The position numbers and the translations under genes were made by a program. Below are positions 12,677-64,000 of a DNA stretch of 64,000 nt, one piece after another; position 1 is the stretch's first letter, and each line of letters starts with the position of its first letter. The stretch is from Raoultibacter phocaeensis. GTDB lineage: Bacteria > Actinomycetota > Coriobacteriia > Coriobacteriales > Eggerthellaceae. The notes beneath the pieces are model-generated. The model worked only from the letters and a program-made list of their open reading frames with translations. It searched no databases and was not told the origin of the DNA. The stretch covers positions 744,001-808,000 of the forward strand of contig NZ_CABDUX010000001.1 in the NCBI RefSeq assembly GCF_901411515.1, read 5' to 3'.

Positions 12677-14433
12677 ACGTTCCGAGGATCAAGAATTTCG
12701 GCACAAAATCCGAGGTTGGGGGTGCGGCAGGATTCTTGGACTGCTCAGGCCGCCAGCCCGAGCCTCCTGCGGCGGCCCTCGATGGTCTCGCAGGTGGCCT
12801 TCTTCCCGTTCTCCCTGAACGTCTTGAGGCGGCCGTCATTGTACCACGTGATGTAGCGCGCGACGGCCTCGAATATCTCGGCGACGGGCGCCCCCGCGCG
12901 CACGAGCGAATGGAACGCCTCGACCTTCGCCCGGCCGAAGAAGCCCTCGCACGCCGCGTTGTCGGGGCTGTGCCCCTTGCGCGACATCGAGCGCACGAGG
13001 CCGGCCCCCTCGCACAGCGCGATCCACCCCTTCCAGCGGTAGTGCCCGCCGCGGTCGGAGTGGATGACGGGACGCTGGCCCTCCCGAAGCGTCGCTATCG
13101 CGTCGGCGAGCGTGGAGTTCGCGAGCTCGGCGTTGGGGCTCTCCGAGGCGCGCCAGGCGACGACCTTGCCGTCGAAGCAGTCGACGACGGCGGACAGGTA
13201 GCACTTGCCGTCGCGCCCCCGCATCTCGGTGATGTCGGTGAGCCACAGCTCGTTGGGCGCGTCCGCCGAGAAGTCGTGCCTCCCGTGCTCGCCGAGCAGC
13301 AGGTTCCCGGGCGCGTCCGACACCTCGCCCGCGTACGAGCTCCATCTCTTCTCCGACCTGGAGCACCGGGCGACGAGCCCCTGGCGCGCCATCGACTCGC
13401 GCACCCTGCGCTCGGGCGCGCGGACGCCGCCGGCCTCCAGCGCCGCTCTGAGGCGGCGGTAGCCGTAGATCCCGCCGTTCTCCGCGAAGGCCGCGGCCAC
13501 GGCCCCGTCGAAGCCCCCGTCCGTCATGCCGGACGGGCTATCGAGCCTCGCCCGGTGGTAGAGGTAGGTGCTCTTCGAGATTCCCAAGAACGTCGAGATC
13601 CGTGCCAGGGAGCACCCGCAGTCCCGCCTCAGCCTCTCGCCTAACCCGACGAGCCGCCTCTTCGACAGGCTCGCCGGGCTTGCGGCTTTTGGGTCGCGCA
13701 TCAGCTCCTTGTAGACGCTCACCTCGAAGAGCGCCTCCTCGAGCTCGGCCCGGAGGGCCTCGATCCGCCTGTCGTCCGATCCCGCCGCCTGCCCCATGCC
13801 CGGCTTCGCCCCCTCGTCCTCGCGCGGCGCGCCCTCCGCGCCGGTCTCGGACATGATAGCGCTTTTGCGGGCCTTCCTGCTCCAGACCGATATTATGCTC
13901 GCTTCGGCGATGCCGAGGCGGCGGGCGATGTGCGCGGGCTTCTCCCCGAGGCCGTAGAGGCGGACGGCCTCCGCCTTGGTGGCCTCGGGGTAGCGGGAGT
14001 GGGGCGCGTGCTCGGCGCGCCCCTTCACCCTGGGCATCTCCGCCGGCAGGGAGCCCTCCTCGGCCTGCTCCAGCCACCGCCTCAGCGACTCCCTGGACGG
14101 GGTCCCCCATTTCCGCTCGGCGGCGCGGGGCGTGAGCCCCTCGGCCCACATCGTCTCGACGTAGCGGACCTTCTCCCTTTCCGTGTACATGCGGCTCCCT
14201 CCTCGCGGCCCCCGCGGGGGCCGCTCGATCGGTCGTGGACCGCCTGCCGGCGGTCCAGCTTCCTGCCGCACCTCCGGTTTGACAATTGTATAACTAGATA
14301 CATAATTAATTTTGCCTATACAGCCAGAGAAACGCCTGGTCACAAAATTTCAAAATGGCAAAACCCGATTGTATGACATTCCATAATTGTCAAACCTCCA
14401 ATTTTGTGCCAGAATTCAGGTTCTCGAGAACAC
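12677..14433 (-). mobile_element. IS3-like insertion sequence with bipartite terminal inverted repeats
   Basis: The inner terminal repeat is GGCACAAAAT followed by CCGAGGTT (left, from 12700) or TGGAGGTT (right, complementary strand, to 14410). Exactly 23 bp outside each sits a second box, ACGTTCC on the left and its counterpart GTGTTCT on the right. They enclose one transposase gene. The coding part is much more GC-rich than its neighbours, indicating recent transfer. No obvious target-site duplication was found, so the outer limits are approximate. The same bipartite ends occur in a short element at 33458-33651. Confidence 0.82.
12745..14190 (-). CDS. IS3-family-like DDE transposase (OrfA-OrfB in one frame)
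   Basis: A 481-residue transposase. Two N-terminal helix-turn-helix segments (VRYVETMWAEGLTPRAAERK and AVRLYGLGEKPAHIARRLGI) correspond to OrfA. They are followed by an HTH_21-like region (GGIYGYRRLRAALEAGGV) and an rve-type catalytic core with Asp in LWLTDITEMRG, Asp in VIHSDRGGHY and Glu in DNAACEGFFGRAK. All three DDE residues are present, so it is probably active. The ATG at 14190 is chosen because GAGGAGGG lies just upstream; the longer frame to 14343 runs through the terminal region. No frameshift separates the OrfA and OrfB parts, unlike many IS3 elements. Confidence 0.9.
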   Translation of the reverse strand: MYTEREKVRYVETMWAEGLTPRAAERKWGTPSRESLRRWLEQAEEGSLPAEMPRVKGRAEHAPHSRYPEATKAEAVRLYGLGEKPAHIARRLGIAEASIISVWSRKARKSAIMSETGAEGAPREDEGAKPGMGQAAGSDDRRIEALRAELEEALFEVSVYKELMRDPKAASPASLSKRRLVGLGERLRRDCGCSLARISTFLGISKSTYLYHRARLDSPSGMTDGGFDGAVAAAFAENGGIYGYRRLRAALEAGGVRAPERRVRESMARQGLVARCSRSEKRWSSYAGEVSDAPGNLLLGEHGRHDFSADAPNELWLTDITEMRGRDGKCYLSAVVDCFDGKVVAWRASESPNAELANSTLADAIATLREGQRPVIHSDRGGHYRWKGWIALCEGAGLVRSMSRKGHSPDNAACEGFFGRAKVEAFHSLVRAGAPVAEIFEAVARYITWYNDGRLKTFRENGKKATCETIEGRRRRLGLAA

Positions 14434-15907: not shown

Positions 15908-15960
15908 AGTCGGCCTCGTTTCAGTCGCTCGCGTTTGGTTCAGTATACTGCGATACTGCG

Positions 15961-16989
15961 CTATCCCGTAGGTGCCAACGTGCTTTTCGAAAACGCCTCA
16001 TCAGCGTACTTTGCAATATCCTTGCTGCTTTTCATCCCAAAGGCATTGGCTATTCTTCTAAAGTAGTTCTTCATGTCGTTCGTTGGAACGGTATCGTGCT
16101 CGGGTTTCTCTTGCGTTTTCACACTTGTTCCATTTCTGCTCGCTATAGGATCCTCATTGAGGACCATTTGCGTAAGAATGCTTCCGCTGTATCGACCGAA
16201 GCTGTTGAAAACTGCCTTAAGCAGCTCTTCTTCGACACCTTCGAACGCGTCCGCAAGCTTAGCTTCTGCTTGCCCCTGATTACTATATTCGACAAGGAGA
16301 TCTTTTCCTTGATACTCCTGTAGGAGCTGCCCGTACACAGGACCAGCGTCGCCCACCATCGGACATTGCTCAAAAAGAGGGGAGTCAAGAAAAACGTAGC
16401 TGAACCCTTGGGCATAATAGGTAAGTTTTTGCAGCATCATTGTGGTTATATCGCCTTCTGACAAAATACAGAAGTAATCGGCGACCTCGTAAATCTTTTC
16501 AGATGACTTGAAATCGCTATCCAAAACAGATGCAACTGCTTCTTCGCTTTTTCGAAACGCGATTTTTGAAATACGGTCTTTTCCCTTAACGAGCACTCGA
16601 TAATATGCAGCAGGATCACTGTAAAGCCTCTCGATTACATCCGAGTACTCTTGAGAGGGAGCTTGACCATCCATAAAACGCGTATAGGTTATCTCGCCCC
16701 ATCCGAGCAGAAGAGACAAAGGGCGTTTTCCTATGTTGTAACGTTTCGGCATCTCTCGAATTTTAGCAAGCGAGACAAGTCCTTTCTTCTCGCGAACCGC
16801 TTCGTTGAACGCACGGCCAGCCTCTTCCTCGAATGGCTCGTAAACCGCTTCGCCACCGCACTTTTCGCAAACCGCTTGCTTTACCCAATACGCATATTCG
16901 ACCCCATCGAGACTCGTTGTGCATTCGACTTCCTTTACGCTGAAAGAAACATCACGTTCGCAGGTGGGACAATATGCGCTTTTTACCAT
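15961..16989 (-). CDS. Antitoxin: MqsA-like zinc/HTH N-terminus fused to a Panacea (DUF4065) domain
   Basis: A 342-residue protein. Cys7/Cys10 and Cys41/Cys44 form a CxxC...CxxC zinc site as in MqsA. An HTH region follows (about 70-125, with LLLGWGEITYTRFMDGQAPS). Residues from about 170 carry the Panacea/SocA-like signature MLQKLTYYAQGFSYV plus a GPVYGQL motif. The ATG at 16989 has AGGTG upstream. The toxin gene lies just upstream on the same strand with 9 bp between, the toxin-first order of mqsRA. The HTH would bind the palindrome at 17509-17533 for autoregulation. Panacea antitoxins neutralise many unrelated toxin folds. Confidence 0.85.
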   Translation of the reverse strand: MVKSAYCPTCERDVSFSVKEVECTTSLDGVEYAYWVKQAVCEKCGGEAVYEPFEEEAGRAFNEAVREKKGLVSLAKIREMPKRYNIGKRPLSLLLGWGEITYTRFMDGQAPSQEYSDVIERLYSDPAAYYRVLVKGKDRISKIAFRKSEEAVASVLDSDFKSSEKIYEVADYFCILSEGDITTMMLQKLTYYAQGFSYVFLDSPLFEQCPMVGDAGPVYGQLLQEYQGKDLLVEYSNQGQAEAKLADAFEGVEEELLKAVFNSFGRYSGSILTQMVLNEDPIASRNGTSVKTQEKPEHDTVPTNDMKNYFRRIANAFGMKSSKDIAKYADEAFSKSTLAPTG

Positions 16990-16998
16990 GGTAATCAC

Positions 16999-17433
16999 CT
17001 ATTCTCCAAAGGCTCTCAGAATCGGATATTCTAATTCGTGAAGCGATACTACGATGTCATGAGGTCCGTTTCTTCTTTGGCAGTCATGTTTTATGTAGAG
17101 TCGAACTTCGCGGTACCCGCTTGCTGCTTTATACAGTACCCGATCGGCACAATACACATACAGCACGCTTCCATCGCCGCTCTTCACCGTATGGCAGAAT
17201 TCGTCCGCTGTAACGCTTAAGAGAAGCTTTTGCTGCTGCTCTTTTCGCCATAAACCGTAAATCCTCATGCAGTCAGAATTCTTCTGTCGGGATTGCCCCC
17301 TACCAAGGGGGTCGCCCTTAAGCACAACGAACGATCCTTTTCGTATGCAAGCATGAATCATACGCGTATAGGAGCATATTTCCTCATATCGATACTCCAT
17401 GCAGTAATAATCGCTTGAATAATCGGGCACCAC
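16999..17433 (-). CDS. Probable toxin of the Panacea locus (MqsR/RelE-fold-like); frame interrupted at an A8 tract
   Basis: The 144-residue frame from a GTG at 17433 ends VRLYIKHDCQ...DIVVSLHELE, resembling the C-terminal strands of MqsR/RelE-like RNases. It lacks an SD at that GTG. A better start is the ATG at 17488, preceded by GGACGGAG, which reads MGNLLYPLELTEEEKK in another frame and meets a stop soon after. The two frames would join exactly if the A8 run (17441-17448 on the plus strand, as T8) were one base shorter, giving ...TEEEKKSIVVPDYSSDYY. The intact gene is therefore probably 16999-17488, with the tract acting as an on/off switch, a slippage site or an inactivating error. The toxin fold is a motif-level guess. 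Confidence 0.7.
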   Translation of the reverse strand: MVPDYSSDYYCMEYRYEEICSYTRMIHACIRKGSFVVLKGDPLGRGQSRQKNSDCMRIYGLWRKEQQQKLLLSVTADEFCHTVKSGDGSVLYVYCADRVLYKAASGYREVRLYIKHDCQRRNGPHDIVVSLHELEYPILRAFGE

Positions 17434-17440
17434 AATGGAC

Positions 17441-17448
17441 TTTTTTTT
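17441..17448 (-). repeat. A8 homopolymer tract at the toxin frame break
   Basis: Eight A residues on the coding (minus) strand. Loss of one A joins the well-initiated upstream frame (ATG 17488) to the toxin frame. Tracts of this length are prone to replication and transcriptional slippage. Confidence 0.7.
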
Positions 17449-17508
17449 CTTCTTCGGTAAGCTCGAGTGGATAGAGAAGATTTCCCATGGTGCTCCGTCC
17501 TGTGCACA

Positions 17509-17533
17509 ATTAATGTATCAATGATACATTAAT
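17509..17533. promoter_or_regulatory. Palindromic operator of the toxin-antitoxin locus
   Basis: A perfect inverted repeat: 12-bp arms ATTAATGTATCA / TGATACATTAAT around one central A. It ends 21 bp before the ATG at 17488. Its position and symmetry fit the autoregulatory operator of an MqsA-like HTH antitoxin dimer. Confidence 0.75.
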
Positions 17534-17636
17534 TTCTAAATGTGTTCAATACTCACACGCGACCGATCCTACTGAGTTGGCCGAGGCGCCCTACCGGAAG
17601 AGGCGGGGCTCATATCGCTCCACCCCAATAGGGCTT

Positions 17637-19142
17637 TTACCGCCGTGCATCCACCATATCGATGAGCTGCTGGCGTGAATGGATGTAGAGCTTCTTGTAG
17701 ATGTTCTTCACGTGCTCGCGAATGGTGTTCTCGGATACGAAGAGCTTCTTCGCGATGCTCGCACGGGTATGGCCTTGCGCAAGCAGGACGAACACCTCGG
17801 ATTCTCGGGCTGACAACTGGAACTTTGCAGCAATGCGTGCGCACCGATCCTCAAGGGATTCGACAACACCCGTATCGCGAGGTACGCCGGTCGCATCGAA
17901 CGGCAGACCGCTCACCTCGGCAACGGCGTTGGCGCCGGGGACGCCGCGCCTCTCGTCCTGTTCCCCAGCCCGGATACGCTCGCCGCTTTGCCCTTGCGCT
18001 GCCCGCGCTTCCCCATCGGAAGCCTCGTCTTCGGATAACCGCATGGTCAGGCGGCTTCCCACCAAAAGCACGGCGCCGAGCACCACAAGCACCGCCACCA
18101 GCACCACGCTGTTCATGATCGCCTGCGTACCGCTTCCCGCCAAAGGCAGGATGTTCTGCCCGATGAACACGCCGCCCGCATAGCCCCACCACAGCGCCGT
18201 CCATACCGCAGGAAACACCATCGGAAGGCCGACGATGCGATGGCGATCGATTTCGACGAGCACGAGAAATACGCAAAGGCGCAGAAACGCCCATGAGAAT
18301 ATCGTGAGCGCAAGCCAGATATCCGATCGGCCGAGATCGACGATGTTGCAGAGGATCACCGCGACAAGGCATGGAGCGAATACCTTGATGAGCGAAATCG
18401 CCTCGATGCGCTTTCGAAAAACCACTGCGGCAACGAAGCACGCGCACGAAACGACGATGGCCGCCGTAGCCGTGTTGGCGTTGAGCCCGCGCATGGAATC
18501 TTCGGTTGCGACATCGGCCGTCGTACCCGCAACGATGCCGAGGGCCACGGCGAAAATTGCCACGCCGACGCCGAGCTTCACGAACTCCAGCGTGTTCGTG
18601 GGGCGCACCAAAAGCGGGCGCTCGTCGAGCGGCTTGGCGCGTATCGCGAGAACGTAGCAAATCCATGAAATGGCCCCGCACGCCACCACGGTGACGGGGA
18701 TGGTGAAGTAACCGCTGCTCATGGCAATCCGGTCGATCACGCTTGAAAGGAAGAACGCGAAGCAGACGCCGATGAGGGTATCGCTCGAGGATCGCTCGGA
18801 AAACGCCATCGCCCACACGAATGCAACAGCGGCCGCAACGAATCCGAGCACTGCTGCGGCAACGTAGATTCCCCAAAGCGGAAGCAGCGTTTGGGCTACG
18901 AGCACACTTGCGACGCACGCCGCGACCGTAGCGAGAAACGAAAGGCCGATCGACCACGCAGGTGTGAACGTACCCGCATCGCGCTTGTAGCTGAACACGC
19001 AAAACGCAAGCAGGAACGCGACGCTCACGCTGCCCACGAGCAAGGGCGAGATCGCTTTATCCGCAGAACTGGGAAACAAAAACGAAAGCGAAGCATTCTG
19101 CCACACCAGAAACAGGGCGAACCCGATGGTAAGCGGATTCAT
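17637..19142 (-). CDS. LuxR-family regulator with multi-pass membrane N-terminal domain; 5' end probably clipped
   Basis: A 501-residue protein. Roughly the first 390 residues contain about twelve hydrophobic segments; the C-terminal LuxR helix-turn-helix reads LSARESEVFVLLAQGHTRAS, IAKKLFVSENTIREHVKNIY, KKLYIHSRQQLIDMV. This architecture is characteristic of Eggerthellaceae and usually sits beside flavoprotein or molybdoenzyme reductases. The ATG at 19142 has no SD, the frame is open upstream into antisense flavoprotein sequence, and the first membrane helix begins at residue 4. A few N-terminal residues and the promoter therefore seem to have been deleted. A paralogue lies at 28878-30347 and another at 61288-62781. 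Confidence 0.88.
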   Translation of the reverse strand: MNPLTIGFALFLVWQNASLSFLFPSSADKAISPLLVGSVSVAFLLAFCVFSYKRDAGTFTPAWSIGLSFLATVAACVASVLVAQTLLPLWGIYVAAAVLGFVAAAVAFVWAMAFSERSSSDTLIGVCFAFFLSSVIDRIAMSSGYFTIPVTVVACGAISWICYVLAIRAKPLDERPLLVRPTNTLEFVKLGVGVAIFAVALGIVAGTTADVATEDSMRGLNANTATAAIVVSCACFVAAVVFRKRIEAISLIKVFAPCLVAVILCNIVDLGRSDIWLALTIFSWAFLRLCVFLVLVEIDRHRIVGLPMVFPAVWTALWWGYAGGVFIGQNILPLAGSGTQAIMNSVVLVAVLVVLGAVLLVGSRLTMRLSEDEASDGEARAAQGQSGERIRAGEQDERRGVPGANAVAEVSGLPFDATGVPRDTGVVESLEDRCARIAAKFQLSARESEVFVLLAQGHTRASIAKKLFVSENTIREHVKNIYKKLYIHSRQQLIDMVDARR

Positions 19143-20438
19143 GGCTACACATCGTTTCCCGGCACGATATCGTACCGCGACTTCAACAACACGCTCGGCA
19201 AAGGCGAAAACCAGCCGGCATGGGGCACCGTGCTCCAGCACAGCATCGACATTGCGCAGGAAAACGGTGCGGAATGGCTCTACAGCACCTCGGCTGTCGT
19301 GCTCATTCAAAACGACGAAGGCGATGTGACGGGCGCGTACGGCAAAGGTCCCGATGGATACGTGCGCGTGAACGCGGATGCCGTCCTGCTTGCCTGCGGC
19401 GACTTCTCCGGCAACGGCGAGATGGTGCTCGCGCTGAACGACGAAGTGCGCGAGCTCGCCGAAGCGAGCGGCCTGGACACCACCGATCCCTCGGGCTTCA
19501 TGGGCATGGGCCAGGACGGCATGGGCCACAAGCTCGCGTGCTGGGCAGGCGGCGTAATGGAGCCCGGGCCGCGCGCAGCCATGAACTTCGGCAACGGCAT
19601 GGGGACGCCGGGGCTTACCGCCATCGGCAACTATCCCGTGTTCGGCCCCGACGGCAAGCGCTTCTACAACGATGCGCAGCTCCAGTTCGGCGGCCTCGGT
19701 TTCATGGCGCGTCGCGCTCGCGGCGAACTTCTGTGCACCATCGCCGACGGCAAGTGGGAAGAAAACATCCAAAACCAAGGCTACGAGCACAACATGTCAT
19801 CGACCACCTGCGCCCGCGAATGGGATCTCGTGAAGGAGGATCTGGCCAACTACACAACGGGTCCCGATGGCTTCGAAGTGTACGGATTCACCGGCTACGG
19901 TATGAGCAAATCAAAGATGTACGCTGCCGAAACGCTTGAAGAGCTCGCCGATATCCTCGGCTACGAAGGCGAAGCGAAGCAGGGCTTGCTCGACGAGATC
20001 GCACACTACAACGAGATGTGCGCGGCGGGCAAAGACACCGACTGGGGCCGCGACGCCGACCTCATGAACCCGCTCGACACCCCGCCTTTCTTCGGTATGG
20101 CGGGCAACACCGACAAAGGCCGCATCTCAAGCGGCATGGTACAGATGTCGGGCGTCCTCGTAACCGATAACTTCGAGGTGCGCCGCCTCGACGACAGCAT
20201 CATCAAGGGCCTTTACGCCTGCGGTAACGATTGCGGCGGACGCTACGCGATCCAGTACCATACGCTCATGGCCGGCAACTCCGTGGGTGTTGCGACCACG
20301 CAGGGTTACGTTGCGGGTGAGCACATCGCCCAGAATCTCGAAGCCGACAAGGCGGCGGCAGATGCGTACGCCGAAAAGCTCGCAAAGATGGCCGAAGAAA
20401 CCGCGAACAAACCGGCTGGTGGCCCTCCCGGGCTGTAA
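19143..20438 (+). pseudogene. 5'-truncated FAD-dependent reductase (fumarate/urocanate reductase-like)
   Basis: From about 19143 the frame reads GYTSFPGTISYRDFNNTLGK and continues without interruption to GGPPGL. It covers the substrate-binding and C-terminal FAD parts (GVLVTDNFEVRRLDDS, GLYACGNDCGGRYAIQYHTL). The Tat signal, the N-terminal Rossmann GxGxxG and roughly 200 residues present in the intact paralogues at 30543-32225 and 58913-60487 are missing. Upstream in-frame codons to 18891 are only antisense of the LuxR gene. Without the dinucleotide-binding motif it cannot bind FAD normally, so it is called a remnant. The 3' part has no internal stop or frameshift, so the truncation looks recent. 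Confidence 0.85.
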
Positions 20439-52700: not shown

Positions 52701-53162
52701 CATCGCTGAAGATCAGGACGTCGTAGTTTGCTTGTACGGTATTCGTGGAGGTGATGGGGAAGTCTGCCGTAACCTCGATCTCAGGCTCTTGCGCTGAAAG
52801 GGCCGCCTGCAGTTGCGCCTCGGATGCAACCTGAACCGCAGCGAGCGGAGCAATGTACGAGGAGGCTTCGGCTGGTTGCATACCGGCTGCCTCTGAGAAC
52901 CCTACGCCGACTTCAACTTCCTCCCAGCCGGGAGTTTCGATTTCGATGCCGCCCGACATCGAACCAAGATCGATAGGAGCGAGCAGATCGTTTTGCTGCT
53001 CAAGGGAAAGGCGGGAACCCGCCAAGGATGATGCGCTCGCACGTGCGTCGGTACCTACATCATGTTCCGCGTAAGCGGAAGAGGGCAAAAAAATGCTGCC
53101 CCCCCCAGCGCAAGGCATGCTGCAAGCACAACGGCTATGCGATTCGCCGCTTTCGATACCAT
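49742..53162 (-). pseudogene. Second beta-helix/CWB2 surface protein, interrupted by two frameshifts (phase-variable or decayed)
   Basis: The real start is the ATG at 53162, after a GGAAAGGA SD. It begins MVSKAANRIAVVLAACLALG, a signal peptide, but a G8 tract (53099-53106) throws it out of frame. With nine G it would continue GGSIFLPSSAYAEHD with an AYA cleavage site. The long frame then covers a beta-helix region (GGGVYVSRT, GGGLALGSY, GGAIYHEYY repeats) and the first CWB2 module (YGADRFETSAKVSSYG). At a C5 tract (50555-50559) a one-base loss breaks DPAAL-PDTRRVLSQAA; the rest of CWB2 continues in another frame to VAFDL at 49742. The last 1.3 kb is much more GC-rich than the beta-helix part. 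Two reversible one-base changes would restore it. Confidence 0.85.
53099..53106 (-). repeat. G8 tract inside the signal-peptide coding region
   Basis: Eight G on the coding strand, directly followed after CAGCA by T7. The upstream signal-peptide frame and the downstream protein frame differ by exactly one base here. Gain of one G would put the gene in frame, the signature of slipped-strand phase variation. Confidence 0.75.
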
Positions 53163-63057: not shown

Positions 63058-64000
63058 ATGGAAGTGACGACTTCTGCACCGCACGGCACGACGGCAAGAA
63101 CCTCTTCGGTAGCGCGGGGGGCCAACCAGATAAACGACAATCGCGCGATGCGCGAGCGCTTCGGCGAGCTCATGGCTTCGGAAAAACGCTTCGGCGTGCT
63201 TGCGATCGGCATCGACGACTTCGATCGCGTCAACAACCTGTATTCGTACGCCTTCGGAGACGAGGTGCTCGATACGCTCAATTATTTCATTGATATTCGC
63301 ACCCCCCCCCAACGAACGTATAGGTTCGACGGCGATTGCTTCGGCATAATCCTTCCCGATACAAGCGATACCGAAGCACTGCTTTCCCTGTTCAACAGTC
63401 TTCTTGAGTTCACCTCTTCAGGATTCGCCATCGACGGTACTGCCGTTTCGTTCAAAATCTCCGGCGGAATCTGCTTATACCCCGACAACGGAGACAGCGC
63501 CGATGAGCTGTACCGCAATCTGCGCATCGCCCTTTCGGATGCCAAGCGAACAGGCGGATCCTGCACCGTCTGCACGCCATCGCTTTGCGCCGATTCGCGC
63601 AAAGCGCTCTTGCTCATGGAAACGCTCCAACGCTGCATTTCCGCTTCCTTCAGAGGCTTTTCGGCCCGCTTCCAGCCGGTAGCCGACGCGGACACGGGCG
63701 AAATCCACGGCTGCGAAGTGCTCATGCGCTGGGGCGACGAACTGTTCCCCGAGGGGGTAACGCCGTTCGAGTTCATCCCCTATCTCGAAGAAAGCGGTCT
63801 CATCACCGCGGCAACGACATGGCTCATGGATGTCGCCTTCGAACAGGCGCGCCAGTGGATCGACATCGATCCCGCATTCATCATGAACATCAACATATCC
63901 AAATACACGCTCGAAGACCCACTGTTCAGGTTCCACATCGTGAAAGCCGCGAAGAAGCACCGCGTCGATCCCCACCACATCATGCTCGAGCTCACGGAAA
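63058..64000 (+). CDS. Diguanylate cyclase/phosphodiesterase-like protein (degenerate GGDEF + EAL), 3' partial
   Basis: The frame opens at ATG 63058, shortly after AAAGGGA, and runs past the window end. A GGDEF-type domain is recognisable (ERFGELMASEKRFGVLAIGI, DDFDRVNNLYSYAFGDEVLD, FKISGGICLYPDNGDSADEL) but the active-site loop reads RFDGDCFG instead of (R)GGDEF, so cyclase activity is unlikely. The EAL domain begins FQPVADADTGEIHGCEVLMR, with ExLxR intact, then MNINISKYTLEDP and MLELTE, so phosphodiesterase activity is possible. No membrane segment is seen. A C9 run (63302-63310) lies in the coding region without breaking the frame. Confidence 0.88.
   Translation, partial: MEVTTSAPHGTTARTSSVARGANQINDNRAMRERFGELMASEKRFGVLAIGIDDFDRVNNLYSYAFGDEVLDTLNYFIDIRTPPQRTYRFDGDCFGIILPDTSDTEALLSLFNSLLEFTSSGFAIDGTAVSFKISGGICLYPDNGDSADELYRNLRIALSDAKRTGGSCTVCTPSLCADSRKALLLMETLQRCISASFRGFSARFQPVADADTGEIHGCEVLMRWGDELFPEGVTPFEFIPYLEESGLITAATTWLMDVAFEQARQWIDIDPAFIMNINISKYTLEDPLFRFHIVKAAKKHRVDPHHIMLELTE

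What the first reader, a model, noticed from the sequence alone, without database searches (positions are those of the whole stretch)
16999..17533. Panacea/MqsA toxin-antitoxin locus whose toxin is switched out of frame by an A8 tract
The well-initiated upstream frame (ATG 17488) and the toxin frame are separated by one base exactly at A8. With A7 a continuous protein results (TEEEKKSIVVPDYSS). A perfect 12+1+12 palindrome lies just upstream of that ATG. This suggests slippage-controlled or phase-variable toxin production, which would be unusual for a toxin-antitoxin module.
Basis: partly seen in the sequence, partly recalled or inferred. Interest (0 to 1): 0.75.

Follow-up and report, generated by a model that had tools for sequence, protein, structure and literature searches.

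The report
Frameshifted MqsR-type toxin beside PanA antitoxin
A bacterium carries a known kind of toxin-antitoxin gene pair whose toxin gene is one base out of frame at a run of eight A's, so the toxin is probably off or made only in traces; nothing yet shows that this is a deliberate switch.

Summary
On the minus strand, ATG 17488 opens a frame that runs into A8 (17441-17448) and stops at 17384; the toxin frame has no start codon until GTG 17433 and ends at 16999. The palindrome is 13+1+13 (17508-17534) and overlaps a -10-like box. The locus is of a known kind: an MqsR-like toxin followed by a PanA antitoxin (MqsA-like part plus Panacea). Two intact relatives (G346, G805) read continuously through the A8 position from the same start motif, with the same spacing and no A-run there. 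So the toxin is frameshifted in this assembly, and the tract is not shared by the three nearest relatives. The module has 47% GC against about 61% in its flanks, and the one other genome of the genus has an empty site. Among 33 unnamed loci checked, 4 others also have a broken toxin. No MutS or NucS was found in the genome, so slippage mutations should be common. Regulated slippage or adaptive phase variation is not shown; published E. coli data found no deletion slippage on poly(A). A single sequencing error cannot be excluded. Most likely this is an ordinary toxin-off or toxin-low allele; read data would decide.

The parts
17521..17549 (-). promoter-like pair TTGAAC-17-TATCAT (-35 17549-17544, -10 17526-17521)
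   Evidence: consensus scan, 9 of 12 matches; the scan found 4 such sites in the region against 2.6 (sd 1.8) in shuffles, so the match alone is weak; position before the start supports it (inference)
17508..17534 (.). 13+1+13 palindrome over the -10-like box; probable operator of the antitoxin
   Evidence: similar palindromes sit just upstream of the toxin start in G011, G346, G324, G314 and G805, seen by eye; binding is inferred
17493..17500 (-). ribosome-binding-like GGACGGAG before ATG 17488
   Evidence: sequence; inference
17384..17488 (-). frame of the inherited start: 34-aa peptide, N-terminal toxin piece MGNLLYPLELTEEEKK then out of the toxin frame to TGA
   Evidence: N-piece similarity to three relatives reached by 0 of 5000 shuffles (summed score)
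17441..17448 (-). A8 tract where the two frames meet
16999..17433 (-). toxin core in its own frame (GTG 17433, 144 aa), MqsR-like, with the five residues invariant in the alignment
17398..17400 (-). ATG in the toxin frame, 14 bases before the stop of the 34-aa frame; possible reinitiation start
   Evidence: sequence; inference
15961..16989 (-). PanA antitoxin, 342 aa: MqsA-like N-terminal part with CxxC pairs (C7/C10, C41/C44) and C-terminal Panacea domain
   Evidence: CxxC read from the translation
15926..17636 (.). block present here and replaced by 69 bases in G001 of the same genus (approximate ends from blastn)
   Evidence: GC 47% in both TA genes against 60.5-61.9% in the flanking genes

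Best explanation
A probably horizontally acquired type II toxin-antitoxin module of the known MqsR:PanA kind. A palindromic operator, probably bound by the antitoxin's MqsA-like part, overlaps the promoter. The toxin gene comes first and is inherited with its start at ATG 17488. In this assembly a length change in an A-run has put the start and the toxin core in different frames. Ribosomes from ATG 17488 would make a 34-aa peptide, and little or no toxin, except perhaps traces from GTG 17433, from ATG 17400 by reinitiation, or by rare slippage. The antitoxin frame stays intact. The change is most likely a recent chance slippage mutation in a bacterium without known mismatch repair, leaving a toxin-off or toxin-low allele. 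Shown: the module's genes, the frame change at A8, continuity in relatives, the empty site, no MutS or NucS hit. Inferred: promoter and operator function, the off state, recency, transfer.
For: Continuous toxins from the same start motif in G346 and G805; same 13-residue spacing from LxYP to P(D/E) across the A8 position in window, G805, G346 and G011; N-piece similarity, 0 of 5000 shuffles. Core 37% identical to G346, E=1.65e-30. MqsR label from relatives: 4 of 11 alignment members hit PF15723, best 2.8e-6. MqsR:PanA pairs are published (PMC10440598 passages). Toxin also broken in G011, G325, G348 and G355. Empty site in G001 and low GC. No mutS1 or NucS match, MutL only far below cut-off. 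No excess divergence of the toxin: 37 and 36% to G805 and G346, which are 33% to each other.
Against: The window toxin itself has no Pfam, NCBIfam or PADLOC hit, the profile found no MqsR in the PDB set and the fold prediction failed. The core shows no decay, which would also fit a toxin still made or a read error. The first 16 residues after the tract are not by themselves significantly similar to the relatives (672 of 5000 shuffles reach the summed score). No expression or read data.
Confidence: 0.62

Rival explanations
1. A8 is a sequencing or assembly error; the toxin gene of the living strain is continuous and the locus is an ordinary intact MqsR:PanA module.
For: The toxin core is undecayed; homopolymers are the usual place of such errors (general knowledge).
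Against: No systematic A-run errors in the 464-kb sample: A/T runs of 6-7 with coding signal on both sides change frame in 2 of 65 cases, random positions in 721 of 8412; the only other A/T8 run lies in an uninterrupted 1287-aa frame. That test is blind near gene starts: it did not flag the window's own A8 (0 of 2 for A/T8).
Confidence: 0.17
2. The toxin core is translated from GTG 17433 (or ATG 17400 after termination of the 34-aa frame), so a working short toxin is made despite A8.
For: More distant intact homologues begin near this point; the whole core with its invariant residues lies after A8; ATG 17400 is 14 bases before the stop of the 34-aa frame.
Against: No Shine-Dalgarno-like GGAG before GTG 17433; the nearest relatives start at the ATG 17488 equivalent.
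Confidence: 0.11
3. Reversible phase variation: the tract switches length by replication slippage, giving toxin-on and toxin-off lineages with a selective role.
For: No MutS or NucS match; all analysed Coriobacteriia reported to lack NucS and MutS-MutL (PMC5290159 passage); this genome has an excess of G/C9 runs, two of the five sampled splitting large genes, so contingency tracts seem to exist in it.
Against: The tract is short, not shared by G011, G346 or G805, and A/T8 runs are rarer than expected in the genome. No length variants seen, but none could be looked for. The other breaks in related toxins are not at long tracts.
Confidence: 0.08
4. Controlled recoding: transcriptional slippage or ribosomal frameshifting at A8 makes a set fraction of full toxin.
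For: A8 lies exactly at the frame change; E. coli RNA polymerase activity was undetectable only below eight A's (PMC6260861 section 19).
Against: The site is not conserved. The direction needed is loss of a base, and the same section reports none for the poly(A) runs tested. A -1 ribosomal slip or a one-base insertion leads to the third frame, not the toxin.
Confidence: 0.02

Closest known systems
MqsR(D2):PanA pairs of Bacillus fungorum and L. rossiae (PMC10440598, passages)
   Same: MqsR-like toxin beside an antitoxin with MqsA-type zinc-binding and HTH part plus C-terminal Panacea; there the zinc-binding part neutralises the toxin.
   Different: Here the toxin gene is frameshifted at A8; nothing was tested experimentally; the MqsR label rests on relatives, not on the window protein's own hits.
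PanAT modules in general (PMC8832971, passages)
   Same: Panacea antitoxin next to a toxin; 90 of 1,268 putative toxins were MqsR-like.
   Different: Toxin-first order, the less common one there (325 against 943). In that study one MqsR (Herbaspirillum) was toxic but not rescued by its PanA in E. coli.
E. coli mqsRA (MqsA = zinc-binding domain plus HTH, as described in the passages)
   Same: Toxin-first operon with an autoregulating antitoxin whose N-terminal part is MqsA-like (operon order of mqsRA recalled).
   Different: E. coli MqsA has no Panacea domain (per the domain description).
TA loci with frameshifted toxin and kept antitoxin, e.g. Shigella yacB (PMC7354431, passage)
   Same: Toxin inactivated by a frameshift, antitoxin kept.
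   Different: Another family; here the break is in a homopolymer and the core shows no other damage.

Membership tests
MqsR:PanA (PanAT) type II TA module | C-terminal Panacea domain in the antitoxin | tested here: met
   PF13274, residues 186-280, 37.7 bits against a cut-off of 25.7
MqsR:PanA (PanAT) type II TA module | MqsA-type zinc-binding and HTH N-terminal part | tested here: inconclusive
   TIGR03830 E=3.7e-12 over residues 7-128 but below its cut-off; Pfam MqsA E=0.055, below cut-off; two CxxC pairs by eye
MqsR:PanA (PanAT) type II TA module | adjacent MqsR-family toxin | tested here: inconclusive
   window protein has no family hit; 4 of 11 aligned members hit PF15723; N52, Y113, K115, S130, H132 invariant in 11 sequences; no PDB MqsR match; fold prediction failed
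MqsR:PanA (PanAT) type II TA module | toxin is toxic and the antitoxin neutralises it | not testable with these tools
   needs expression tests
Simple-sequence contingency (phase-variable) locus | tract inside the coding region where a one-base change alters the frame | tested here: met
Simple-sequence contingency (phase-variable) locus | tract kept in relatives | tested here: not met
   no run of 6 or more at the place in G011 and G346, none in G805 by eye
Simple-sequence contingency (phase-variable) locus | tract length varies among cells or isolates | not testable with these tools
   no reads and no second isolate held; viral contigs pattern scan with variable length found 0
Programmed recoding (transcriptional slippage or ribosomal frameshift) | conserved slippery site leading to the needed frame | tested here: not met
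   site absent in the three nearest relatives; -1 slip leads to the third frame

The most novel reading that the evidence does not exclude
Probability: 0.08. Interest if true: 0.7.

Novelty: new member of a known kind. Interest (0 to 1): 0.3.

Why it matters
As it stands it is one more MqsR:PanA module, with a damaged toxin gene. It shows that toxins of this family are lost more than once while the antitoxin stays, and that automatic annotation would start this toxin at GTG 17433 and miss the frameshift. If tract switching were shown, a type II TA module would become a phase-variable trait, in a class of bacteria reported to lack MutS-MutL and NucS, where this could be tested directly.

Tried and rejected
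Toxin search in the family: 57 of 138 genomes at E<=1, but only the own copy and G011 (2.7e-14) are convincing by that search; the weaker matches were not counted as homologues on that score. Genome-contig scans with toxin and antitoxin and viral-contig scans gave no relative. PADLOC gave nothing for the two proteins. Near-identity DNA searches of plasmids and phages gave nothing. The phylum search found only the own genome at E<=1e-25. The structure model had pLDDT 36.7 and no fold search was run. The PDB profile search gave only a weak match to an unrelated ligase. RNA folding of the leader was unremarkable (z -1.46). The first tblastn for broken toxins returned nothing, apparently from a wrong option, and was repeated. 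Considered and rejected: -1 ribosomal frameshifting (wrong frame), the palindrome as part of a switch (an operator fits better), systematic homopolymer error. Limits: one search held loci for only the best 30 of its matches; 'continuous toxin' was judged by eye from translations, and several distant ones lack the full YxK...SFH pattern; the frame-change test counts each tract on both strands and is insensitive near gene starts.

Full report
What is there. On the minus strand a promoter-like TTGAAC-17-TATCAT (17549-17521; such matches are no more frequent in the region than chance allows) is overlapped by a perfect 13+1+13 palindrome (17508-17534). GGACGGAG and ATG 17488 follow. That frame reads MGNLLYPLELTEEEKK into A8 (17441-17448) and goes on, outside the toxin frame, to TGA 17386-17384 (34 aa). 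The toxin frame is open for 172 codons stop to stop, but its first ATG/GTG/TTG is GTG 17433; it ends at 16999 (144 aa). The antitoxin frame (15961-16989) is intact.

What kind of system. The antitoxin has a C-terminal Panacea domain (PF13274, 4.3e-9) and an MqsA-like N-terminal part (TIGR03830, 3.7e-12, below its cut-off) with two CxxC pairs. The toxin alone has no hit in Pfam, NCBIfam or PADLOC. In an alignment with ten relatives found beside such antitoxins, N52, Y113, K115, S130 and H132 are invariant, and 4 of the 11 members hit Pfam MqsR_toxin, best 2.8e-6. The profile found no MqsR in the PDB set, and single-sequence folding failed. MqsR:PanA modules are known: passages of PMC10440598 describe B. 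fungorum and L. rossiae pairs, with neutralisation by the zinc-binding part in B. fungorum. Passages of PMC8832971 count 90 MqsR-like among 1,268 putative toxins, and report one MqsR that its PanA did not rescue.

The frame change. In G346 the toxin is continuous from MAELLYP, in G805 from a TTG start followed by LIYP. G011 starts MGKLLYP but is broken further down by a frameshift with a TGA and a TAA. With the window's two pieces set end to end, all four sequences have 13 residues from LxYP to P(D/E) across the tract. The 16-residue N-piece scores higher with the three relatives than every one of 5000 shuffles (summed; 8, 7 and 4 of 5000 reach the single scores). The first 16 residues after the tract alone do not stand out (672 of 5000), so the downstream case rests on the longer core: 37% identity to G346, E=1.65e-30. 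G011 and G346 have no run of 6 or more of one base in the region, and none is seen in G805. Elsewhere such runs do occur: one C. difficile plasmid toxin of an A+T-rich genome has A7 close to its start, in an open frame. So the inherited gene ran through the place, and the break was found only in this genome among the near relatives. More distant intact homologues (G314, G324, G782, Bacillota plasmids) begin near the GTG 17433 position, so an internal start could still give a whole core.

Age and origin. The core has no stop and keeps the invariant residues. Its identity to G805 and G346 (37 and 36%) is not below theirs to each other (33%); the antitoxins give 40, 40 and 39%. No accelerated decay is seen. 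Both TA genes have 47% GC against 60.5 and 61.9% in the flanking genes. G001, the only other genome of the genus held, has the flanking genes with 69 bases where the window has 1711 (blastn ends) and no antitoxin match. The module was probably gained by transfer, or lost in G001.

How common is damage. I checked 36 loci (31 unnamed, 5 named) and 2 more unnamed ones. The unnamed ones come from the antitoxin searches (63 of 396 genomes at E<=1e-5, 3 of 31 at 1e-20, 11 of 395 at 1e-30), of which loci were held for a part. Of the 33 unnamed, 23 have a continuous toxin-like ORF, 5 a broken one (window, G011, G325, G348, G355) and 5 could not be judged (L039 at a contig end; L040, L045, L050 and L110 without a recognised toxin). 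The 5 named ones are continuous. G348's break lies at C3 where its relative has C4, so that one is not at a long tract. Several of these genomes are drafts in many contigs, so some breaks may be errors.

Is A8 an error? In 464 kb of the own genome (the window plus 20 stretches) A/T runs number 118 of length 6, 35 of 7, 2 of 8 and none longer; simulations (5 per model) give 5.6 to 13.4 of 8 or more. A/T runs of 6-7 with coding signal on both sides change frame in 2 of 65 cases, random positions in 721 of 8412. The other A/T8 run lies in an uninterrupted 1287-aa frame. The test did not flag the window's own A8, because only about 40 coding bases precede it, so it says little about gene starts. 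A-run errors are not systematic; a single one cannot be excluded.

Is it a switch? The own genome has no match to mutS1 or NucS, and only a 38-bit MutL match (cut-off 180) (controls match in 11, 7 and 14 of 14 named genomes for MutS, NucS and MutL). Slippage should then go uncorrected. G/C runs of 9 or more are in excess (5 against 0 to 1.8); two of the five split large reading frames. Tract switching is thus plausible in this organism, but the A8 tract is short, not conserved, and of a kind that is rarer than expected. Transcriptional slippage would have to lose a base; section 19 of PMC6260861 reports none for the poly(A) runs tested with E. coli RNA polymerase. A -1 ribosomal slip reaches the third frame.

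Literature. Listings of searches on TA with phase variation, homopolymer and frameshift, phase-variable and slipped-strand TA, H. pylori type I TA tracts, frameshifted toxins with kept antitoxins and MqsR with Panacea showed no title on a phase-variable Panacea or MqsR module; of these lists I read passages of PMC8538453, PMC10440598, PMC7354431 and PMC13174815. PMC7354431 gives an earlier frameshifted toxin with a kept antitoxin.

Verdict. A known kind of TA module whose toxin is frameshifted at A8, most likely an ordinary toxin-off or toxin-low allele. The palindrome is most simply the operator. Adaptive switching is possible but has no direct support.

Noticed in passing
L092:11741-11749 (-), L094:15620-15628 (+); also L092:17565-17573 (-), L094:1110-1118 (+): Runs of nine G inside very large, surface-protein-like genes (judged by eye). 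The first two split the reading frame (532+2020 aa and 154+1255 aa); the other two are in frame, one just after the start of a signal-peptide-like N-terminus of a 3602-codon frame. G/C runs of 9 or more: 5 in 464 kb against 0-1.8 simulated. They look like slipped-strand contingency loci.
   Followed up: partly
window 53087-53106 (-): G8 followed by T7 in the signal-peptide region of a 969-codon frame; by eye the signal peptide and the rest are in different frames, so this too may be a phase-variable surface gene.
   Followed up: partly
window 63302-63310 (+): C9 run in frame within a 339-codon frame that looks GGDEF-like by eye.
   Followed up: no
whole genome G000: No match to mutS1 or NucS and only a weak MutL match: no known mismatch repair, as PMC5290159 reports for Coriobacteriia.
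   Followed up: partly
window about 19140: About 820 bases present in G001 are missing here; the FAD-binding reductase (18891-20438 frame) has lost its N-terminal part and the neighbouring LuxR-type gene may have lost its start.
   Followed up: partly
window 12745-14343 (-): IS3-family transposase in one uninterrupted 532-aa frame (NF033516, 9.3e-81), beside the module's downstream gene.
   Followed up: no
L110 (G116) and L068 (G124): Related PanA-type antitoxin genes without a recognised MqsR-type toxin upstream, possible orphan antitoxins.
   Followed up: no
L109 (G805), upstream of the toxin start: A long palindrome of about 20+1+20 bases around a TACTATTAGTA core lies just before the toxin start (by eye).
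   Followed up: no
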